Virus record (IMG/VR): IMGVR_UViG_3300030106_001089
Coordinates: 1-49,720 of that record
DNA length: 49,720 nucleotides
Strand: one strand, 5' to 3'
From: a virus
This document shows positions 13,910-34,204 of this stretch, piece after piece. The position numbers and the translations under genes are program-made. Within the stretch, counting starts at the first letter, position 1. The number at the start of each line of letters is the position of its first letter. The notes beneath the pieces were generated by a model. That model saw nothing but the letters and a program-made list of their open reading frames with translations, did not search any database and was not told the origin of the DNA.

Positions 13910-16900
13910 ATGCCTGTAGTAAAAGTTCCTGATGGTAGGCTAGTTAACTTCCCTGACGACATGCCAAGGGAAGAAATAAAAAGTATTATTGCAGATAAGT
14001 TTCCCGATGCTTCATTTGAACGTACGCCTTCTACTCCCGAACTAGGTTTAATGGACACCTTTGGTGGTGGTGTATCACGAGGCTTGTCCCGTCTAGGTTC
14101 TACCTTCACCGACATTATTCCTGCTATGGTAGGAAGTGCCGTAGGTGCAGATGAATATGCCCAAGAACAATTCGCTGAAGCAGCAGAAAAGCAACGGATA
14201 AGCGAACTACTCAATCCTACCCAGTTTGCTAGTTACAAAGACGTAGAAGGTATTGGAGACTTTACCCGTTTTGTAGGTGAAACTATCGGTGAGCAGGTGG
14301 GTAACCTTGGTCTTACTGTAGGCACAGCTTTGACAGGCGGAGCACTTGCTCCTGTAGCAGGTGCAGCTAGGGCTACCGGACAACTAGCAGGTGCAGCTTT
14401 TGGTTCTTACGCCCTTAACGCACCCGAAGTCTTTGAAAACATCTACCGTGAAACAGGTGAAACAGCCCCCGGTACGGCTCTTATCTTTGGTGCAGGAGCA
14501 GCGGCACTAGACTCAATACTACCTGCTGCACTAGCTCGTAACATCTCTGGTCCTATGAAAGCGGGGATAGTCACTAAGTTACTGGAACGTTCGGGTATGC
14601 AACAAGGTGTGCTGCGTTCGGGTACTGCGGGACTGTTCTCTGGTCTAGGCGTGGAAGGCATAACAGAAGGCGCACAAGAAGGCATCAGTATAGCGGCTGA
14701 AAGATTCATTGATGACAACCCTGACGTGTTCGGCAGCAAAGAGTTTGACCGGATAATGGAAGCAAGTGTTAGGGGTGCTGTAGCAGGTGGAGGCTTTGGT
14801 ACTGTTGGCGGTGGTGTACAAGGTGCTAGAGAGGGAGCACAACGTAGGCAACGGTTACAAGACTTAAAAGAATCCAGAAAACTTAGAGATGATCTTAATA
14901 AAAAAGGCGAAGAAGCATTTACAGAATATGTTGAGCAATTTGATACCGCTTTAAAAAATGTAGAAGAAAATACCAAACAGGCACAGGAAGCTAGGGCTAA
15001 AAAAGCAGCAAAAACTCAACCTAAAACTCCAGCAGAAGTTTTTCAAGCTGACACCACACAATTTGATGCGTTTGGTCAACCTGTACAGGTAGACATAACA
15101 GAAGTTGCTAAGTTTACTAAGCCTCAAGTGCAACAAGAAGCACAACGTAGAGCAAGAAATAACAACACTAAGGTATCTGAAGAACTTAAAAATGTTCGAG
15201 CTGAAGTAAAAACAGCTAAAGATACAATAGCAACCCAAGAAAAAGAACGCAAAGCACAAGAGAAACTTGACGCACAACGACGTAAGCAGTTGTTAGGCGC
15301 GAAGCAATTAGACTTACCTTTAGAACCGTCTAAGCAAGAACGTGCAGTTAGACAAGCCAACCTTGAAGATGTTGTACGAGAAGAAGCAGAAGGAATAGTC
15401 GATGCAAGGTTTGAAGGGCAAAGCAGACCCGACAATTTTGAAGATTTAGTGCAACAAGAAATAGAGACAATAAACCAACGTTCTTTTGAAGGACAAGGCG
15501 ATGTGTTTGCAGGTATGCCAGAGGGTGAGATAACTCGTGCTCCTGCTATAGGCACAGCACTTAATGACTTCTTAGCAGAAAAGAACATACCCGTTAATTC
15601 TGCTACAAAAAAAGCCTTGGCAGGTAAAGATTTGGCTGTACCTGAACAACGCCAAGAAGCTGTTAATGAGTTAAATACAGTCCTTGAAAACACTAAAGGT
15701 AAAGAACCTTACAAGAAAAAAATAGATGCAGCCATTGTTGCTTTGGGTGGCACACCTGTTCAAACTACAGAAATTACTGCTGACATTACAGAGGATCAAC
15801 TACAAGCCGTAAATGAGTTTGTAGATGACATACTTGTACCCAAAAAACGAAAAACTAAAACTAAAGGGAAACCAACAAAACCTGTTGTTACTAAAAGTTT
15901 TGCTGATGAATTAGCACAAAGTTCGCCACTTACTGAGGAGGCCAGCACAGAGACAGAGACAAAGAAAACAGGCCAAACAAGCGTTTTTGACCGCAGGGGT
16001 AAAAAATCATTTAATAAGCCTACTTACCGAGGTAAAGCACTTAACAGAGCGCAACGACGTATAGCCGAGAGGGGTAACTTTAAGCAACTACTAAGTGACC
16101 TTATAAACACTCAGCCTAGAGAAATACAACAAGTACTGCGTAAGATACGTTCACAGAGCTTGGCTACCAAGCTAGTCATTGGTGCTACGCCAGAAGGCAC
16201 AAGTGGGTACTATGACGCTGCAACTGATACTATAGTTTTAGACCCACAGGAAGGGTTAACAGAAGAAACTTTCTTGCACGAGGCAACCCACGCCGCGTTA
16301 GCACAAGCTCTTAATAACCCAGACTTACAGATAACTAAAGACTTTTTTAAGTTCTATTCTGATATAAAAGATCAGATGGGAGATATGTACGGTGGTCAGG
16401 ACTTACAAGAGTTTGCCGCAGAATTAGTAGGTAACCCTGAGTTTCAAGCACTGCTTAAGGATACTAAAGCACCGGATGCTCCAGCTAGTAAAAATCTATT
16501 TCGCTCTATTATGGAAGCCATTGCACGTTTCTTTGGTTTTCGTCCAAAACAAACCGCGTATGCCAAAGGTTTAGACTTTATAGATAAGGTACTCGATGTA
16601 TCACAAGACGTAGAACCTACTTTATTTGATCGCTTGTTATTGGGTACACCTCAATCAGCAGGTAATGCACTTCGAGATGCTATACGTGGTGTACCTACTT
16701 TAGCAGGTAAAAACAAAGAACGTGTGCTAAATACACTATCTAGATCAGGTGAGTTAATGAGTCGGGCTATGGGTGTGTTACGTATGCACGACTTTGCTAA
16801 GTTGTTTGCAGGTACAGAACTGGGAAGGGTAGCTGGGGAAATACGCGACATTGTGTTGCAACGTCAAGCCAGTGTAGAGAAAAAAATAAAAGATTTACAA

Positions 16901-19309
16901 ACTGCCTTTAGAAGGTACGACAAAGTACGTAAAGAGCATACTAAAGATTTTGAGAAGTTAGGAAAGATTGCTTTTAAAGCTCGTGAAAAAGCATACGATT
17001 TAGTAAATGTGGATGGTAAAGAGTTTAACTACAACAAACTAAACGCAGAACAAAAAGCTGAGTTTAACAACCTTAAAAACCAGTTAAACAACTTACACCC
17101 AGATGTACAAGCAGCTTACAAAGAAATGCGCGAAACGTATCGTAAGATGTATGAGGCGTATAAAACAAAAATTTTATCGTTAGCAGAAAAAAGTAAAATA
17201 AAAGACTTAGAAAAACAATTTACACGAACTCATTCGGCTGTAGGATACGTTCCCTTTTTACGGCATGGTGCGTATTATTTAGAGTTTAACTCTACAAACC
17301 CAGACGGAACAAAACGACGTGAAGTAGTGAGTTTCTCATCTCCAAGGTTACGTGCTCAATATATTAAAGACAACAATATTGCATCTAACCAAGTAGTGCG
17401 TCAATTTAAGAACTTAGAAGAAGCAGTGTACAACCAAGCGGATCACCCAGATTCAAGTTTTGTTGTACAACTAATGAACTCCACTGATCCTAGTTTAGAT
17501 GCAGCCGCTAAAAATGCTATTTACCAAGGCTATCTAGCTGCTTTTCCAGAACATTCTTTTATGAATCGTTTGCGTAGAGCCAAACTTACACCGGGTGCTG
17601 ATACAGATTTAGCCCGAAGTTTTGGAGATACAATGGTGAAATGGGCGCGTAAGGAAGCTGCCCTTGAGTATATCCCTAAGTTAACTGAAAAGTTTGATGA
17701 GATGGGTAGGTTAGAAGTAGGTACAAACCCAAGGCAACAGGCAGCTAGGGATGCCATAATGCGTAGAAAAGATTTTACTTTGAGTCCTAACTACAGTGAC
17801 TTGACCAGTTTCTTTGCAACGGGAGCATATAACTTATTTTTGTTTGGTAACATTTCTTCAGCCGCAGTTAACACAAGTGCCATAGCATTGCTTTCTATGC
17901 CTTTATTGGGTGGACAGTATGGGTACGCTAAAGCTAATGCAGCCATAGCAAGAGCTATGAAAACTGCAATGCCTTCCTTACAGAATTTTAACAAAGACAC
18001 TTTTACATTTGATGATGCACCGTGGACAAAAAACCAACGTTACACCACGTTACTTGACACTTTGGATAAGTATGGGCAGCGTCAACACACGATGCAAAGA
18101 GAAATATTAGAAGGCGCTAAACAAGCAATGGACGACTATAGTTCCTTTGGAGCTAAAACAATGAACTTGGGTAGCATACCTTTTACAGCGGCGGAAGAAT
18201 ACAGCAGAGCTACAACAGCTATTGCCGCATACGATCTGGCATTGGACGCAGGTAAAAGTCAAAAAGTAGCTGCTGAAGAAGCCGTTAAACTTACAATGGA
18301 TGTGCATACTTCAGGTATGGCAGCAGAAGGGCCGGGCTGGTTACAGCATGGATACGGGCGTGTAATGTTTACGTTTAAAACCTTTATATGGAACAGTGCA
18401 TCTATTACTGCCCAAGCCATGAACGCTTCGTTGCGTGGAGAAAGTGCAGAGGTGCGAAAGCAAGCTAGGAAACAAGTGCTTGGCATCTACATGGTAAGTG
18501 GTGCGTTAGCAGGAGTTAACGGTATGCCTTTCTTTGGGGCTGCTGCTACGTTTGCCAATATCGCAAATGCTTTGCTTGGGGATGATGAAGAACCTTTTAA
18601 TGCACGAGACTTATCTAGGGAATTTATGGGCGACTTCTTATTCAAAGGCCCACTAAACTATGCGACTAACCTTGAAATATCTAATCGTGTGGGGATAGCT
18701 AACGGTTTACTGTTTAGAGAAGACCCGTACAGCGTCGAACAAAACGGTTTGTTAATGACAGCAGTGATGCAATCTACAGGGCCAGTGGGTAGCTTTGCTT
18801 TAAACTTAGAGCGTAATGTGCCTAAACAATTAGAAAGGGGAGAGTATCTTCGCGCCATAGAGTCTATGTCACCTAGTGGACTGCGTAACTTATTTAAGAC
18901 AACTAGGTTTGCACAAGAGGGCGCACGCACCGCTAATGGTCAGCCTATAATGGAGGACTTTAATGGGTTTCAACTGGCTCTGCAAGCTTTTGGTTTTACT
19001 CCTGCTGAACTGTCTAACCTCTATGAAAATAGGTCAGCAGCTCTAAATTTCCAAAGTAAGGTAAGAGCGAAAAAACAAAAAATACTTAAACAATACTATT
19101 TAGGAGTAACCACAGGAGATCGTGGCTTACAACGTAAAGCCCTAGCAGATTACAGAAAGTTTGCGCGTAACTTCCCTTCTTTAATTAATGAAGATACACT
19201 GGCACGTTCTTTTAAATCTCGTGCTAAATCAGAACAAGAGTTATTGTACGGCGTTAGGTTTGACAAAAATTTATTGCCAGATATAGAAGAAAGATTTTTC
19301 GACGATTAA
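13910..19309 (+). CDS. Giant internal virion protein with HExxH protease-like motif
   Basis: A 1799-aa protein, the largest in the window. The N-terminus (VVKVPDGRLVNFPDDMPREE) is a known opening of large phage polyvalent proteins. Gly/Ala-rich hydrophobic helices follow (about residues 130-250), then a long charged coiled-coil stretch (about 300-520). HEATH at residues 790-794 in TFLHEATHAALAQAL, followed by an acidic EFAAELVGNPEF, suggests a zinc-metallopeptidase fold. The C-terminal half carries further hydrophobic segments (near 1300-1330 and 1520-1550). Size and position parallel T7 gp16-like ejection proteins that cross the envelope during infection. The stop overlaps a minus-strand stop. 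Confidence 0.75.
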   Translation: MPVVKVPDGRLVNFPDDMPREEIKSIIADKFPDASFERTPSTPELGLMDTFGGGVSRGLSRLGSTFTDIIPAMVGSAVGADEYAQEQFAEAAEKQRISELLNPTQFASYKDVEGIGDFTRFVGETIGEQVGNLGLTVGTALTGGALAPVAGAARATGQLAGAAFGSYALNAPEVFENIYRETGETAPGTALIFGAGAAALDSILPAALARNISGPMKAGIVTKLLERSGMQQGVLRSGTAGLFSGLGVEGITEGAQEGISIAAERFIDDNPDVFGSKEFDRIMEASVRGAVAGGGFGTVGGGVQGAREGAQRRQRLQDLKESRKLRDDLNKKGEEAFTEYVEQFDTALKNVEENTKQAQEARAKKAAKTQPKTPAEVFQADTTQFDAFGQPVQVDITEVAKFTKPQVQQEAQRRARNNNTKVSEELKNVRAEVKTAKDTIATQEKERKAQEKLDAQRRKQLLGAKQLDLPLEPSKQERAVRQANLEDVVREEAEGIVDARFEGQSRPDNFEDLVQQEIETINQRSFEGQGDVFAGMPEGEITRAPAIGTALNDFLAEKNIPVNSATKKALAGKDLAVPEQRQEAVNELNTVLENTKGKEPYKKKIDAAIVALGGTPVQTTEITADITEDQLQAVNEFVDDILVPKKRKTKTKGKPTKPVVTKSFADELAQSSPLTEEASTETETKKTGQTSVFDRRGKKSFNKPTYRGKALNRAQRRIAERGNFKQLLSDLINTQPREIQQVLRKIRSQSLATKLVIGATPEGTSGYYDAATDTIVLDPQEGLTEETFLHEATHAALAQALNNPDLQITKDFFKFYSDIKDQMGDMYGGQDLQEFAAELVGNPEFQALLKDTKAPDAPASKNLFRSIMEAIARFFGFRPKQTAYAKGLDFIDKVLDVSQDVEPTLFDRLLLGTPQSAGNALRDAIRGVPTLAGKNKERVLNTLSRSGELMSRAMGVLRMHDFAKLFAGTELGRVAGEIRDIVLQRQASVEKKIKDLQTAFRRYDKVRKEHTKDFEKLGKIAFKAREKAYDLVNVDGKEFNYNKLNAEQKAEFNNLKNQLNNLHPDVQAAYKEMRETYRKMYEAYKTKILSLAEKSKIKDLEKQFTRTHSAVGYVPFLRHGAYYLEFNSTNPDGTKRREVVSFSSPRLRAQYIKDNNIASNQVVRQFKNLEEAVYNQADHPDSSFVVQLMNSTDPSLDAAAKNAIYQGYLAAFPEHSFMNRLRRAKLTPGADTDLARSFGDTMVKWARKEAALEYIPKLTEKFDEMGRLEVGTNPRQQAARDAIMRRKDFTLSPNYSDLTSFFATGAYNLFLFGNISSAAVNTSAIALLSMPLLGGQYGYAKANAAIARAMKTAMPSLQNFNKDTFTFDDAPWTKNQRYTTLLDTLDKYGQRQHTMQREILEGAKQAMDDYSSFGAKTMNLGSIPFTAAEEYSRATTAIAAYDLALDAGKSQKVAAEEAVKLTMDVHTSGMAAEGPGWLQHGYGRVMFTFKTFIWNSASITAQAMNASLRGESAEVRKQARKQVLGIYMVSGALAGVNGMPFFGAAATFANIANALLGDDEEPFNARDLSREFMGDFLFKGPLNYATNLEISNRVGIANGLLFREDPYSVEQNGLLMTAVMQSTGPVGSFALNLERNVPKQLERGEYLRAIESMSPSGLRNLFKTTRFAQEGARTANGQPIMEDFNGFQLALQAFGFTPAELSNLYENRSAALNFQSKVRAKKQKILKQYYLGVTTGDRGLQRKALADYRKFARNFPSLINEDTLARSFKSRAKSEQELLYGVRFDKNLLPDIEERFFDD

Positions 19310-27826: not shown

Positions 27827-29683
27827 TCAACAAGCTCCGTAAGAATCACCGTATCCGCCCTCGCAATCTAAAGGCAGATCAAACGCCCATACAGGTCTTG
27901 TCTTCATACAATCTTCAACGTATTTTAACCCTTGTTCTACTTCTTTTTCAGGCACAATACAACCTATTGCATCATGCACCGTCATCACTACTTTGTACCG
28001 TTTAGCTACCCTAAGTAGTTGTTCTCCAATAACAATTCTTGCCAACGCCTGACACACGTTCTCGATGACCTTACCTCCATATATTCTAGTAGACACAATA
28101 GCCTTACCTCTACGGGTGTCGTACAAAGTCTCTGTATCACCCAGTTCATCAGTCACAGTGCGTAAGTTAGGATACTTCACATGCAACCCATTAGGTAGCA
28201 AAATCCCCTTGTCTCCCTCTACTGTAATCACATCAGGGCGACCAAACTTAGTACATTTGTCGTTCATTATCTGCTTCAGCGCCCTTCCTGCACTGCGCCA
28301 GAGCTTCGGTATGTTCTTATAAGTAGTTCTGTATACACCTATGATGCGGTCACATTCCTCTTGTTCCAGTTCTACACCGAATGTTTTAAGCTGATTTCTA
28401 AATTTAACGGCCCCCATGCCGTATCCTGCACCTAATATAGTAGTCTTACCCACGAACCGTTCTTCTTTTGATATATCCTTTTCAGGTTTATCGTAGATAG
28501 CAGAGGCCATTATCTTGTACACATCATCACCCCTGTCGAACGCTTGGACCAATTCCTCTTCCTCGGCCAACCACGCCAGAGTCCGTGCCTCTATCTGAGA
28601 CAGGTCACAATCCACAAACTTGTACCCTTCTGGAGCGCACATAGCTTTTTTAAGCGCACTGCCTCGTGGTAAGTTCTGCATATTAATCTTGTCATCCCCG
28701 CCCCATCTGCCTGTGTGGGCGGCGTAATAACGCAAAGGTATGGGTAGCTTCCCTCTTTTCCCTATAGATATAAATCGCTCTGTACGTTTTTCTTCGATGG
28801 TAGACCTTACACCTAGTCTAGCAGCCACAAGAGCTTGTACCGACGGATTTTCATGGTCCTGTAGAGCCTTAAAGCCTTCGTCACTTTTGGCAAAAGCGAA
28901 CGTCTCCTTGCCTGTGGTAAGACTTATCTTTACAGGAGGTTTGACACCGTACTCCTGAAGCAGCTCGGCAAACTGCGGATTACTGGTTAGTTTAGTTTTT
29001 TCGTGGCTAACCTTGTCCATAAGTTCTGCTTTAGTAGCTAGAACGCCCTCTAGGTGCCCGGTGAGCACCTCGGTATCCAGTTCTAAAGCAGGTTCACTGA
29101 ACATGCGTATAGTCAGGTCAATCAGGTTAAGTTCGGTTACCGAAAAACCACGGTTCAAAAACTCTTGGAATAGTTTAAAAGTAAGTTCAACGTCTTGTAT
29201 GCAGTACCCACCATAGGCTTCTATTTCTTCCGGTGTAAAATCTAAACGCTTCTTGCCTATTGCGTCATGCACCTCAGTTCCTTTTTTACCTAGCGCATAG
29301 TATTCCGAAAGCGCAGCCAGTCCATGACTGACTTCGATAGCGTGCAAAGCACGAGACATGGAAAGGGTATCGGCAATCTTTTTGGGTTTGATTCCAAAGT
29401 GCCAGTTAAGGATAGCCATGTCGAACATGGCGTTATGGGCGACAGCCACAGAGTTTGACCAATCAAACTGAGACAAAAACTTTGCGATTTGTTTTTTACT
29501 GCCCGTATGCCACTGGGCCGCATCTAAATGATGATAGTTCTTGCCCTTGGCAAAGCTAGACTTCTTGACAGCCACACCGATAACTTCAAAACGAGAATCT
29601 CTAACGTATTCTTCGGTAGTCAGTTTGCTTAAGCTGTAATCTTTGGAGTAGTAGGTCTCAAAATCAAGGGTCAGAATTTCCAT
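27827..29683 (-). CDS. polA: Family A DNA polymerase with 3'-5' exonuclease
   Basis: A 618-aa replicative polymerase without the 5'-3' exonuclease domain, as usual in phages. Proofreading motifs are intact: LDFET (Asp7, Glu9), HNAMFDMA (Asp88) and YCIQD (Tyr160, Asp164). Polymerase motif A is DLSQIEAR (360-367), motif B is ERFVGKTTILGAGYGMG (408-424) and motif C is VHDA near 573. In motif B the residue aligned with E. coli Phe762 is Leu417, a substitution linked in phage surveys to slower, more accurate polymerases. The gene overlaps the VRR-NUC gene by 20 bases and is followed by a structured intergenic region. Confidence 0.93.
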   Translation of the reverse strand: MEILTLDFETYYSKDYSLSKLTTEEYVRDSRFEVIGVAVKKSSFAKGKNYHHLDAAQWHTGSKKQIAKFLSQFDWSNSVAVAHNAMFDMAILNWHFGIKPKKIADTLSMSRALHAIEVSHGLAALSEYYALGKKGTEVHDAIGKKRLDFTPEEIEAYGGYCIQDVELTFKLFQEFLNRGFSVTELNLIDLTIRMFSEPALELDTEVLTGHLEGVLATKAELMDKVSHEKTKLTSNPQFAELLQEYGVKPPVKISLTTGKETFAFAKSDEGFKALQDHENPSVQALVAARLGVRSTIEEKRTERFISIGKRGKLPIPLRYYAAHTGRWGGDDKINMQNLPRGSALKKAMCAPEGYKFVDCDLSQIEARTLAWLAEEEELVQAFDRGDDVYKIMASAIYDKPEKDISKEERFVGKTTILGAGYGMGAVKFRNQLKTFGVELEQEECDRIIGVYRTTYKNIPKLWRSAGRALKQIMNDKCTKFGRPDVITVEGDKGILLPNGLHVKYPNLRTVTDELGDTETLYDTRRGKAIVSTRIYGGKVIENVCQALARIVIGEQLLRVAKRYKVVMTVHDAIGCIVPEKEVEQGLKYVEDCMKTRPVWAFDLPLDCEGGYGDSYGAC

Positions 29684-29984
29684 TATGCGCTTCGTTTATG
29701 TTATTCAAAAGAGTTACTAGTGAGGGCATGTTGCCCTCGTTGATTACACAAGACGAACCTCCTGCTCCTTTAATAGCTGCAAGTTCTCTTTGTTGCAGCG
29801 CAGTCGGTTTGTTTGTACCTGCTTTACATTCTATGCCAACAAAGTGTCCGTGATAACAACACACAATGTCCGGCACTCCACTTCGACCCATGCCATACGT
29901 AGCTGGAAAGAAGTAGTAGGCTTTATGTTGCTTTAGTATATCTACTACTTTGTTCTTAACTTTCTTTTCTGGAGTTAAAGCCAT
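29664..29984 (-). CDS. VRR-NUC domain nuclease
   Basis: A 106-aa protein. ATG 29984 (MALTPEKKVKNKVVDIL) is chosen because the longer frame runs back into the terminator at 30024-30047. The PD-(D/E)xK core of VRR-NUC proteins is visible: GRSGVPDIV (Asp39), GIECKAG (Glu52, Lys54) and LQQREL (Gln65). Such proteins cut branched or flap DNA, fitting a role in processing replication intermediates. It heads the polymerase operon and overlaps polA. No clear Shine-Dalgarno is seen; the promoter candidate places the transcript start almost at the ATG. Confidence 0.85.
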   Translation of the reverse strand: MALTPEKKVKNKVVDILKQHKAYYFFPATYGMGRSGVPDIVCCYHGHFVGIECKAGTNKPTALQQRELAAIKGAGGSSCVINEGNMPSLVTLLNNINEAHNGNSDP

Positions 29985-29989
29985 AGGGT

Positions 29990-30018
29990 AGGATAGCGTA
30001 ACTGTTGGACTTTGTAAA
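29990..30018 (-). promoter_or_regulatory. Sigma70-like promoter candidate before VRR-NUC/polA
   Basis: On the minus strand, TTTACA (30013-30018) and TATCCT (29990-29995) are separated by 17 bases. It sits directly downstream of the TIGR terminator, where a fresh promoter is needed for the replication genes. The predicted start is at or next to the ATG at 29984, which would make a leaderless or nearly leaderless message. Confidence 0.4.
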
Positions 30019-30023
30019 GGCAC

Positions 30024-30047
30024 AAAAAAACCCCGCACAGGGCGGGG
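30024..30047 (-). terminator. Intrinsic terminator after TIGR array
   Basis: Read on the minus strand, a 6-bp GC stem (CCCCGC with GCGGGG, 30031-30047) with a 5-base loop is followed by seven T (30030 to 30024). It is 76 bases beyond the last full array unit and is oriented to end a transcript coming from the tas gene and array. Confidence 0.85.
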
Positions 30048-30056
30048 TCGAATTGC

Positions 30057-30080
30057 GCTAGGTAGGTATACCTACCTAGC
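30057..30080. repeat. GGTAGGT dyad, 24-bp perfect palindrome
   Basis: Core GGTAGGTATACCTACC, extended by four matching bases on each side. The longest of nine copies, placed between the distal end of the TIGR array and its terminator. Confidence 0.85.
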
Positions 30081-30088
30081 TATTTAGG

Positions 30089-31210
30089 TTAAGCGTTTAA
30101 AAGTGTGGGTGTCTAACACTATTGACTCGTTAGATTAGTCTGGTTGTCTTAGTATACATGACTCGTTTAAGCTAAATGGTTGTCTCGCTCGCTTTGACTC
30201 GTTAATTAAATCTGGTTGTCTTCTCTATCCTGACTCGTTAGACCAAGTTGGTTGTCGTGCCTTAAATGACTCGCTCTGAGCTATTGGTTGTGCTTTGGTT
30301 AGTGGCACTCGTTTCACTGAACTGGTTGTCTCCCCTCGTCTGACTCGTTTTCCTTTCGTGGTTGTCTTATTCGCCTTGACTCGCTTCCAGTAAATGGTTG
30401 TCTACCCCAAACTGACTCGCTCGTACTGCATGGTTGTCTGATTTTTCTTGACTCGCTTCCAGTAAATGGTTGTCTTTTCTTTAATGACTCGTTCCATTAA
30501 AATGGTTGTCTCGTACACAATGACTCGTTTCACCCCTGTGGTTGTCTTGGCGATACTGACTCGTTAGTTACCTCTGGTTGCCTCGCGCATGTTGACTCGT
30601 TTTACTCCTCTGGTTGTCTGTTCGCATGTGACTCGCTCAGTATTCTTGGTTGTCTAACCGTATTTGACTCGTTTTCGCTGTGTGTTTGTCTAAAATATTA
30701 TGACTCGCTTTTTTCCATTGGTTGTCTTTTTAAGCCTGACTCGTTCCGTTTTAGTGGTTGTGTTAATTTCTGTGACTCGCTTCCCTTAACTGGTTGTCTT
30801 TTCTTTAATGACTCGTTTTCGAACTTTGGTTGTCTTGAGTTCTTTGACTCGTTCTGGTTCTCTGGTTGTCTTTAGCTTTCTGACTCGTTTTTGCGGGATG
30901 GTTGTCTCCGTTTGCCTGACTCGTTCGTAGGAAATGGTTGTCTTCCCTCATCTGACTCGTTGCGCTTTTCTGGATGTATTTTACCCTCTGACTCGTTCTT
31001 CTCCAATGGTTGTTTTCACTTCTGCGACTCGTTTCTAGCCAATGGTTGTCTCGTCTTTTATGACTCGTTTATATCGTTTGGTTGTCTCGTTTTGTCTGAC
31101 TCGTTTATATCCAATGGTCTTCTTCTTTTATATGACTCGTTCATTCTGCATGGTTGTCTTTGAGTTTCTGACTCGTTTGTCGGATATGGTTGTCTACTCA
31201 CTGATGACCC
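30089..31210 (-). repeat. TIGR array: 30 units of 36 bp with two 9-nt spacers each
   Basis: From 30123 to 31204 the + strand repeats TGACTCGTT, 9 variable bases, TGGTTGTCT, 9 variable bases, with a 36-bp period. Thirty units are seen; only unit 5 deviates (two extra bases near 30303). Read on the minus strand, the direction of the adjoining tas gene and of the terminator, the halves are AGACAACCA and AACGAGTCA. TGACTCGCT replaces TGACTCGTT in units 5, 8, 9, 10, 15, 17 and 19. A degenerate unit lies at 30089-30122 and a bare TGAC remnant at 31205. The exact period, dual 9-nt spacers and neighbouring Nop/IS110-like protein match Tandem Interspaced Guide RNA arrays, known to be processed into 36-nt tigRNAs. 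The half-repeats contain complementary GAC and GTC triplets and GA steps, as needed for box C/D-like kinks (inference). Confidence 0.95.
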
Positions 31211-31216
31211 AATTAC

Positions 31217-32083
31217 TTAGGCAGCTTTACCATGCACTTTGCCTAGCTTTGCTTCTGTGTAAGTAGGTGCAACAGGTAAACCTTCTAACTTGCGCCACTC
31301 GTTGTACAGATCAATCAAGAACATTTTAATCATGTAACGATTAGCCATGTTATGCCTGTGCAGTTTGGACTTCTCCTTATGGGCATCCATGTTCTCAATA
31401 CGGTGTTTGTAGTCGTCATATATTTTACGATACTTACACTTGTCTGGCGACTGTTTGATAAAACTACTACCCAATACGCCTGTGAGTTTAGTTTTAAGAA
31501 AAGGATTAAACGTGATACCTTTCTTGGATTGCACCTTACCATCCTTATCGGTGTACTCACTGTCCTCAAGGTGTTCCTTTCTTCTGCTGCGTCCTTGTCC
31601 GTCACCTGCCACATCCAACCCTGCATACTTGTGTAGGCTAGAAGGATACTCGGCTTGAGTAATATCAATCTCACTAATGATTACCCCTGCCATAGCAGGA
31701 CCAACGCCTGTAACCCCAGCGAGAAACTCGGTGTAGATAGGGTAGTCTTTCAAGATGTTACCCAACCTTCGGAAGTGAGACTTCTCCTGCTGTTCCAACT
31801 CCAAGTAGTTATCCACCAAACACAACTCGGTGTAGTCACTAATCACCTCGTCACCTTTGAATGTGGCTTGTCTTGGGAAGGAAGCAACTCCATCGGTCAA
31901 AAGTTTATGTGACCTTCGCAGGTTTTGCAGAACCATCTGTCCCGCTTTGTCTAACTTATCTTCCTTCTGGCTAGGAGCAAGACCTAGCTTGGCTTTGAAG
32001 TTACCGACAATACGGTTGCCAGTTTGTATGCGGTTCTTCTGGATGTCGTATGCTCCACGTACTATAGTTTTTAAGTTACTCAT
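31217..32083 (-). CDS. tasA: Tas protein: Nop/IS110-like tigRNA-guided DNA-binding protein without nuclease domain
   Basis: A 288-aa protein starting at ATG 32083 after the cassette GGAGAACGAAGA. Residues 123-140 (GVTGVGPAMAGVIISEID) form the helix-hairpin-helix-like segment shared by IS110 transposase C-termini and Tas proteins; KYAGLDV (152-158), NPFLKTKLTGVLGSSFIK (193-210) and the helix HRHNMANRYMIKMFLIDLY (242-260) continue that fold. The N-terminal 110 residues are helical and basic. The acidic DEDD/RuvC domain of true IS110 transposases and TasR is absent and there is no HNH, so this fits the stand-alone, nuclease-less Tas type. The stop lies 6 bases from the array edge, so gene and array are probably one transcript. 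Known relatives bind DNA using both tigRNA spacers; binding or silencing is inferred here. Confidence 0.9.
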   Translation of the reverse strand: MSNLKTIVRGAYDIQKNRIQTGNRIVGNFKAKLGLAPSQKEDKLDKAGQMVLQNLRRSHKLLTDGVASFPRQATFKGDEVISDYTELCLVDNYLELEQQEKSHFRRLGNILKDYPIYTEFLAGVTGVGPAMAGVIISEIDITQAEYPSSLHKYAGLDVAGDGQGRSRRKEHLEDSEYTDKDGKVQSKKGITFNPFLKTKLTGVLGSSFIKQSPDKCKYRKIYDDYKHRIENMDAHKEKSKLHRHNMANRYMIKMFLIDLYNEWRKLEGLPVAPTYTEAKLGKVHGKAA

Positions 32084-34186: not shown

Positions 34187-34204
34187 AGGTAGGTATACCT
34201 ACCT
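34187..34204. repeat. GGTAGGT dyad, 18-bp palindrome
   Basis: Core GGTAGGTATACCTACC at 34188-34203, abutting the stop of the DUF3150-like gene and preceding the ribosome-binding site of the next minus-strand gene. Confidence 0.85.

What the first reader, a model, noticed from the sequence alone, without database searches (positions are those of the whole stretch)
30089..32083. Complete phage-borne TIGR-Tas RNA-guided system
Seen: 30 units with a 36-bp period, each with two distinct short repeats and two variable 9-nt spacers, directly behind a 288-aa protein with an IS110/Nop-like core, all on one strand and closed by an intrinsic terminator. Known: TIGR-Tas systems (described in 2025 from phages and parasitic bacteria) have 36-nt guides with two spacers and a Nop-domain Tas protein. 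Inference: this locus makes about 30 tigRNAs and a Tas effector. Generic pipelines would probably label it a hypothetical or IS110 transposase plus a low-complexity repeat.
Basis: partly seen in the sequence, partly recalled or inferred. Interest (0 to 1): 0.97.

Follow-up and report, generated by a model that had tools for sequence, protein, structure and literature searches.

The report
Phage TIGR-TasA RNA-guided DNA-binding system
This phage carries a complete TIGR-Tas system of a kind described in 2025: one small RNA-binding protein without a nuclease, plus an array of 31 two-part guides, most of which are replaced quickly between sister phages while one conserved guide matches transfer-RNA genes, giving a rare lead on what such systems aim at.

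Summary
On the minus strand, a 288-aa Tas protein (31217-32083) is followed within 4 nt by an array of 30 regular edge-spacerA-loop-spacerB units plus one degenerate unit, truncated edge repeats at both ends, and an intrinsic terminator. The protein passes the NCBIfam TIGR-Tas model (114 bits, cut-off 100), and its predicted fold matches TasH and TasR best in the PDB. It lacks the N-terminal RuvC or HNH nuclease, so it is a TasA type. The kind is published (Faure et al. 2025): a new member of a known kind.

New here is comparative evidence from 84 related loci. A sister phage with 95.5% identical flanks and an identical Tas shares only 6 of 31 guides exactly, so guides turn over fast. The tas-array cassette also sits in phages with no other shared neighbours. 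One guide (unit 26) persists across phages about 70% identical; in the published A-rc(B) geometry at gap 0 it is an 18-mer of tRNA positions 7-24. In IMG/VR it matched 41 contigs at gap 0 against 4 and 3 at gaps 1 and 2, mostly tRNA genes. No self-target was found. Targets of other guides, and function, remain unproven.

The parts
31217..32083 (-). tasA gene, 288 aa, Nop-like (IS110 Transposase_20-related) RNA-binding core, no RuvC or HNH domain
   Evidence: NCBIfam NF052498 114.4 bits vs cut-off 100; PDB 9mty TasR E 3e-10, TasH 21kl E 5e-7; Foldseek top 11 hits all TasH/TasR; no beta strand before residue 157 in the model
30094..31213 (-). TIGR array: 30 regular edge-A-loop-B units plus one degenerate unit
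31205..31213 (-). 5'-truncated edge repeat ATTGGGTCA that opens the array
   Evidence: same form in close relatives
30276..30313 (-). unit 26: conserved guide, 11-nt edge AACGAGTGCCA, spacer A CTAACCAAA (30302-30294), variant loop GCACAACCA, spacer B ATAGCTCAG (30284-30276); A-rc(B) is the reverse complement of tRNA positions 7-24
30240..30275 (-). unit 27: guide TTTAAGGCA/ACTTGGTCT shared with L002-L004, L006 and (1 change) L009; possible but unproven match to T4-like DNA polymerase genes
30094..30097 (-). 3'-truncated edge repeat AACG that closes the array
30029..30049 (-). intrinsic terminator (8-bp stem, T-run) behind the array
30057..30080 (.). perfect palindrome GCTAGGTAGGTATACCTACCTAGC between array and terminator; its 18-bp core recurs at 34187 and 40097

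Best explanation
A TIGR-TasA system in a tailed phage. The tas-array transcript would be cut into about 31 tigRNAs; a TasA dimer would load one tigRNA and open a dsDNA site where spacer A pairs with one strand and spacer B with the other, directly adjacent. With no nuclease, it most likely acts as an RNA-guided roadblock (bending DNA and blocking transcription or replication) on DNA that is not its own. One conserved guide aims at tRNA genes (of the host, or carried by rival phages); most others are exchanged quickly between sister phages, as expected for guides that follow changing targets. Shown here: family membership, array anatomy, lack of a nuclease fold, guide turnover, cassette mobility, the gap-0 tRNA match. 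Inferred from the family: processing, dimer, dsDNA binding. Inferred only: roadblock role. Separate estimates: family identity 0.97; nuclease-free 0.93; tRNA-gene target of unit 26 0.8; roadblock role 0.4.
For: Family model above cut-off, matched by all 12 aligned relatives; solved TasR/TasH are the best sequence and fold matches. Array grammar as in PMC12045711. No strands in residues 1-156 of the model, so no RNase H-like RuvC fold; Pfam sees no HNH. Turnover: L003 is 95.5% identical over 17.6 kb of flanks, Tas 100% identical, 6 of 31 guides exact. Mobility: L006 and L009 share tas at 88/86% but none of the 14 other window genes tested on the held stretch. Unit 26: 41 contigs at gap 0, 4 at gap 1, 3 at gap 2 in IMG/VR; 37 of 42 gap-0 sites inside ARAGORN tRNAs, nearly all starting at tRNA position 7, most often tRNA-Ile; expected chance matches among 929 guides about 0.002; three exact hits in 198 bacterial genomes, all at tRNA-His genes, reversed-pattern control 0. 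No self-target.
Against: No RNA or binding data. Target searches for five other guides (units 2, 7, 21, 27, 28) gave nothing clearly beyond chance, and no other guide of 929 hit the 2 Mb at hand convincingly. The host is unknown, so whether its tRNA genes carry the exact 18-mer is untested; the 18-mer was in only 3 of 198 genomes of two phyla. Part of the tRNA set was itself fetched with this guide. The L010 form of the guide has no tRNA match in the collections searched.
Confidence: 0.72

Rival explanations
1. TasA with its guides acts on the host chromosome (tRNA and other genes) to shut down or reprogramme host transcription during infection, rather than on rival phages or plasmids.
For: tRNA genes are present in every host, and the tRNA 18-mer occurs in bacterial genomes too. 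A relative's guide (L120) matches the 23S rRNA gene with one mismatch.
Against: The rRNA match is within the background of shifted-gap controls. Fast turnover of most guides fits changing rivals better than conserved host genes. Host unknown.
Confidence: 0.3
2. Inter-element competition: guides target competing phages or plasmids, including phages with tRNA arrays and T4-like phages.
For: Exact unit-26 sites occur in phage contigs with tRNA arrays; the L009 form of unit 27 matches seven T4-like DNA polymerase genes exactly at gap 0, against 1 and 0 contigs at gaps 1 and 2.
Against: The seven polymerase hits are one homologous family, so effectively one event; similar chance families appear at gap 2 for another guide, and the window's own guide has a mismatch there. 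Faure et al. saw no plaque reduction with TasR in E. coli.
Confidence: 0.35
3. An IS110-family transposon remnant beside an unrelated repeat.
For: Pfam Transposase_20 and PHROG transposase matches.
Against: IS110 model 20.7 bits against cut-off 140; helical N-terminus without a DEDD fold; gene-array linkage kept in dozens of phages.
Confidence: 0.02
4. The unit-26/tRNA match is accidental or a relic, not a working guide.
For: It is one guide among about 930, with an odd 11-nt edge and an altered loop.
Against: Kept with 0-2 changes in phages about 70% identical in flanks; the change in L008 also occurs in tRNA genes; correct geometry at gap 0; chance about 0.002.
Confidence: 0.18

Closest known systems
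TIGR-TasA systems (e.g. Flavonifractor plautii FpTIGR; Faure et al. 2025, PMC12045711)
   Same: Solo Nop-domain protein next to a dual-repeat array with 9-nt spacers, truncated end edges and terminator.
   Different: Larger array (31 units; paper: most often 5-15); repeats A[A/G]CGAGTCA and AGACAACCA rather than the UG...CCA form of TasR arrays; one conserved tRNA-directed guide.
TasH of Salicola phage CGphi29 and TasR of a Thermoproteota archaeon (PDB 21kl, 9w04, 9mty)
   Same: Same Nop core by sequence and fold.
   Different: Both carry an N-terminal nuclease (HNH, RuvC) that is absent here.
IS110-family RNA-guided recombinases (e.g. IS621)
   Same: Related RNA-binding domain; next-best fold hits.
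   Different: No DEDD catalytic domain, no mobile element seen, an array instead of a bridge RNA.
Box C/D snoRNPs (Nop5)
   Same: Nop domain and two-part guides, according to the paper; not tested here.
   Different: DNA-strand geometry: only one spacer of unit 26 is complementary to the tRNA itself, so the match is to the gene, not the RNA.

Membership tests
TIGR-Tas | Nop-domain Tas protein | tested here: met
   NF052498 114.4 bits > 100; 9mty, 21kl; fold
TIGR-Tas | Two alternating 8-12-nt repeats with 9-nt spacers, array beside tas | tested here: met
TIGR-Tas | 5'- and 3'-truncated edge repeats and a terminator | tested here: met
TIGR-Tas | Processing into 36-nt tigRNAs bound to Tas | not testable with these tools
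   needs small-RNA sequencing
TIGR-Tas | Tandem-spacer dsDNA targeting: A and B pair with opposite strands, adjacent | tested here: inconclusive
   Indirect: unit 26 matches tRNA genes as A-rc(B) at gap 0; binding not testable
TasA subtype | No nuclease domain | tested here: met
   No Pfam nuclease; helical N-terminus in the model
TasR / TasH subtypes | N-terminal RuvC or HNH nuclease | tested here: not met
IS110 transposase | DEDD RuvC-like domain and family score | tested here: not met
   20.7 bits vs cut-off 140; helical N-terminus

The most novel reading that the evidence does not exclude
Nuclease-free TIGR-TasA of phages keeps, under purifying selection, a guide against tRNA genes (D-arm, most often tRNA-Ile) while the rest of the array turns over almost completely between sister phages: a natural target for a TIGR system, acting as RNA-guided silencing of tRNA genes of the host or of rival phages.
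Probability: 0.4. Interest if true: 0.82.

Novelty: new member of a known kind. Interest (0 to 1): 0.55.

Why it matters
The 2025 paper says that genuine targets of TIGR spacers, the role of TasA and the way arrays change are unknown. This family offers a testable natural target (the D-arm of tRNA genes), a sister pair that shows how fast guides are replaced, and about 930 guides whose targets can be sought once hosts are known.

Tried and rejected
Self-targeting: no A-rc(B) match with 2 or fewer mismatches in the window. Cross-targeting among relatives: nothing above shifted-gap controls among 929 guides and 2 Mb. Coding targets in general: differences between related guides show no 3-base periodicity, though single families look codon-like. 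Unit 27 against T4-like DNA polymerase: one homologous family, the window's guide has a mismatch, and the gene holds a local repeat that also fits the reverse geometry; not counted. 23S rRNA for an L120 guide: first looked significant, but controls on more sequence gave similar hits. Units 2, 7, 21, 28: no gap-0 excess. 23S family searches failed on the server. No Rfam family at the locus.

Full report
Observation. Read on the minus strand, the 288-aa gene (31217-32083) ends with TAA and the array starts directly behind it with a truncated edge repeat ATTGGGTCA. Thirty units follow with edge A[A/G]CGAGTCA, a 9-nt spacer A, loop AGACAACCA and a 9-nt spacer B; unit 26 has an 11-nt edge (AACGAGTGCCA) and a loop GCACAACCA; a 31st unit is degenerate (8-nt spacers), and the array closes with AACG before a palindrome and a classical terminator at 30049-30029. 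Repeat columns are nearly invariant and spacer columns near random.

What it is. NCBIfam NF052498 (TIGR-Tas) scores 114.4 bits against a cut-off of 100, the IS110 model 20.7 against 140; PHROGs and Pfam see only an IS110-like transposase. By sequence the protein matches solved TasR (9mty, E 3e-10) and TasH (21kl, E 5e-7). The AlphaFold2 model (pLDDT 78.5) has TasH and TasR as its eleven best PDB matches, E 9e-8 to 9e-5, and IS621 next. The first 156 residues of the model are without strands, so neither RuvC nor HNH is seen: in the terms of Faure et al. (PMC12045711) this is a TasA. The array features of that paper are met. Processing and binding cannot be tested here.

Relatives. Two scans of IMG/VR gave 84 loci with a related Tas; about 78 of them have arrays by a repeat-chain parser, 3 to 36 units each, 929 distinct 9+9 guides with the window's. 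The window's 31 units are near the top. In L006 and L009 the Tas is 88 and 86% identical but none of the 14 other window genes tested occurs on the stretch held, and in L115 and L116 the cassette sits on the other side of polA: the tas-array unit moves as a cassette.

Guide turnover. L003 is 95.5% identical to the window over 17.6 kb outside the array and has an identical Tas, yet only units 1, 2, 7, 26, 27 and 31 are shared exactly; 17 and 29 are shared with 3-4 changes, and the order of shared units differs. Units 26, 27 and 21 recur, exact or nearly so, in phages only about 70-79% identical in what aligns. So most guides are replaced quickly and a few persist.

A natural target. The published geometry predicts a target 5'-A-rc(B)-3' with a gap of 0-2 (orientation derived by me from the cleavage pattern). 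For unit 26 and its variants the pattern CTAACCARA-N{0,2}-CTGAGYTAT was searched in IMG/VR, the three gaps serving as each other's control: 41 contigs at gap 0, 4 at gap 1, 3 at gap 2. The gap-0 site is the reverse complement of ATARCTCAGTYTGGTTAG; 37 of 42 gap-0 sites lie inside tRNA genes, almost always starting at tRNA position 7, most often tRNA-Ile; even several gap-1 and gap-2 sites are tRNAs with longer D-loops. Three exact hits in 198 bacterial genomes of two phyla were all at tRNA-His genes, with none for the reversed pattern. Pairing every spacer A with every spacer B against 439 distinct tRNAs gives an expected 0.002 correct pairs by chance, against two seen, both forms of unit 26; part of that tRNA set was fetched with this guide, so the figure is a guide only. 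Spacer B equals the tRNA sense strand and only spacer A is complementary to it, so the target is the gene (dsDNA), not the RNA. The window has no tRNA gene and no self-target.

What did not hold. Unit 27 (L009 form) matches seven T4-like DNA polymerase genes at one codon position, but that is one homologous family, the window's form has a mismatch, and comparable chance families appear for another guide at gap 2. An L120 guide matches the 23S rRNA gene with one mismatch; with wider sequence and shifted-gap controls this is background. Units 2, 7, 21 and 28 show no gap-0 excess. Related guides show no codon periodicity overall.

Mechanism. By homology to TasR/TasH, a TasA dimer with one tigRNA should unwind and sharply bend an 18-bp site (structure described). 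Without a nuclease the simplest effect is a block to transcription or replication, as the authors also suggest. Whether the blocked DNA is the host's or a rival's is open: tRNA genes occur in both. Rapid turnover and the lack of self-matches favour targets that vary and are not the phage's own.

Verdict. It is a known kind, so the locus alone is a further member; the conserved tRNA guide and the measured turnover give the family a testable natural target, which is the part of interest.

Noticed in passing
window 30060, 34187, 40097: The 18-bp perfect palindrome AGGTAGGTATACCTACCT occurs three times, each between genes; absent from nine related loci checked. Perhaps an operator or hairpin of this phage.
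   Followed up: partly
arrays of window and relatives, 929 guides: Both spacers are purine-rich (58-60%), with A about half the time at spacer position 9; because A and B read opposite target strands, the bias must arise at guide level.
   Followed up: partly
window 30303-30313 and 30285-30293: The tRNA-directed unit 26 has an 11-nt edge AACGARTGCCA and an altered loop in every relative that carries it; the cause is unknown.
   Followed up: no
arrays of L113, L115-L119: A guide family (TTGCTCACGGCATATTGT and three variants) differs mostly at third codon positions of a peptide AHG[ILV]L, which would fit a coding target.
   Followed up: no
window 29664-30038: VRR-NUC/Hjc-like endonuclease gene directly behind the terminator; in relatives it is near polA or elsewhere rather than tied to tas.
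   Followed up: partly
window 13910-19309: 1799-aa protein with matches to DarB-like antirestriction and virion proteins.
   Followed up: no
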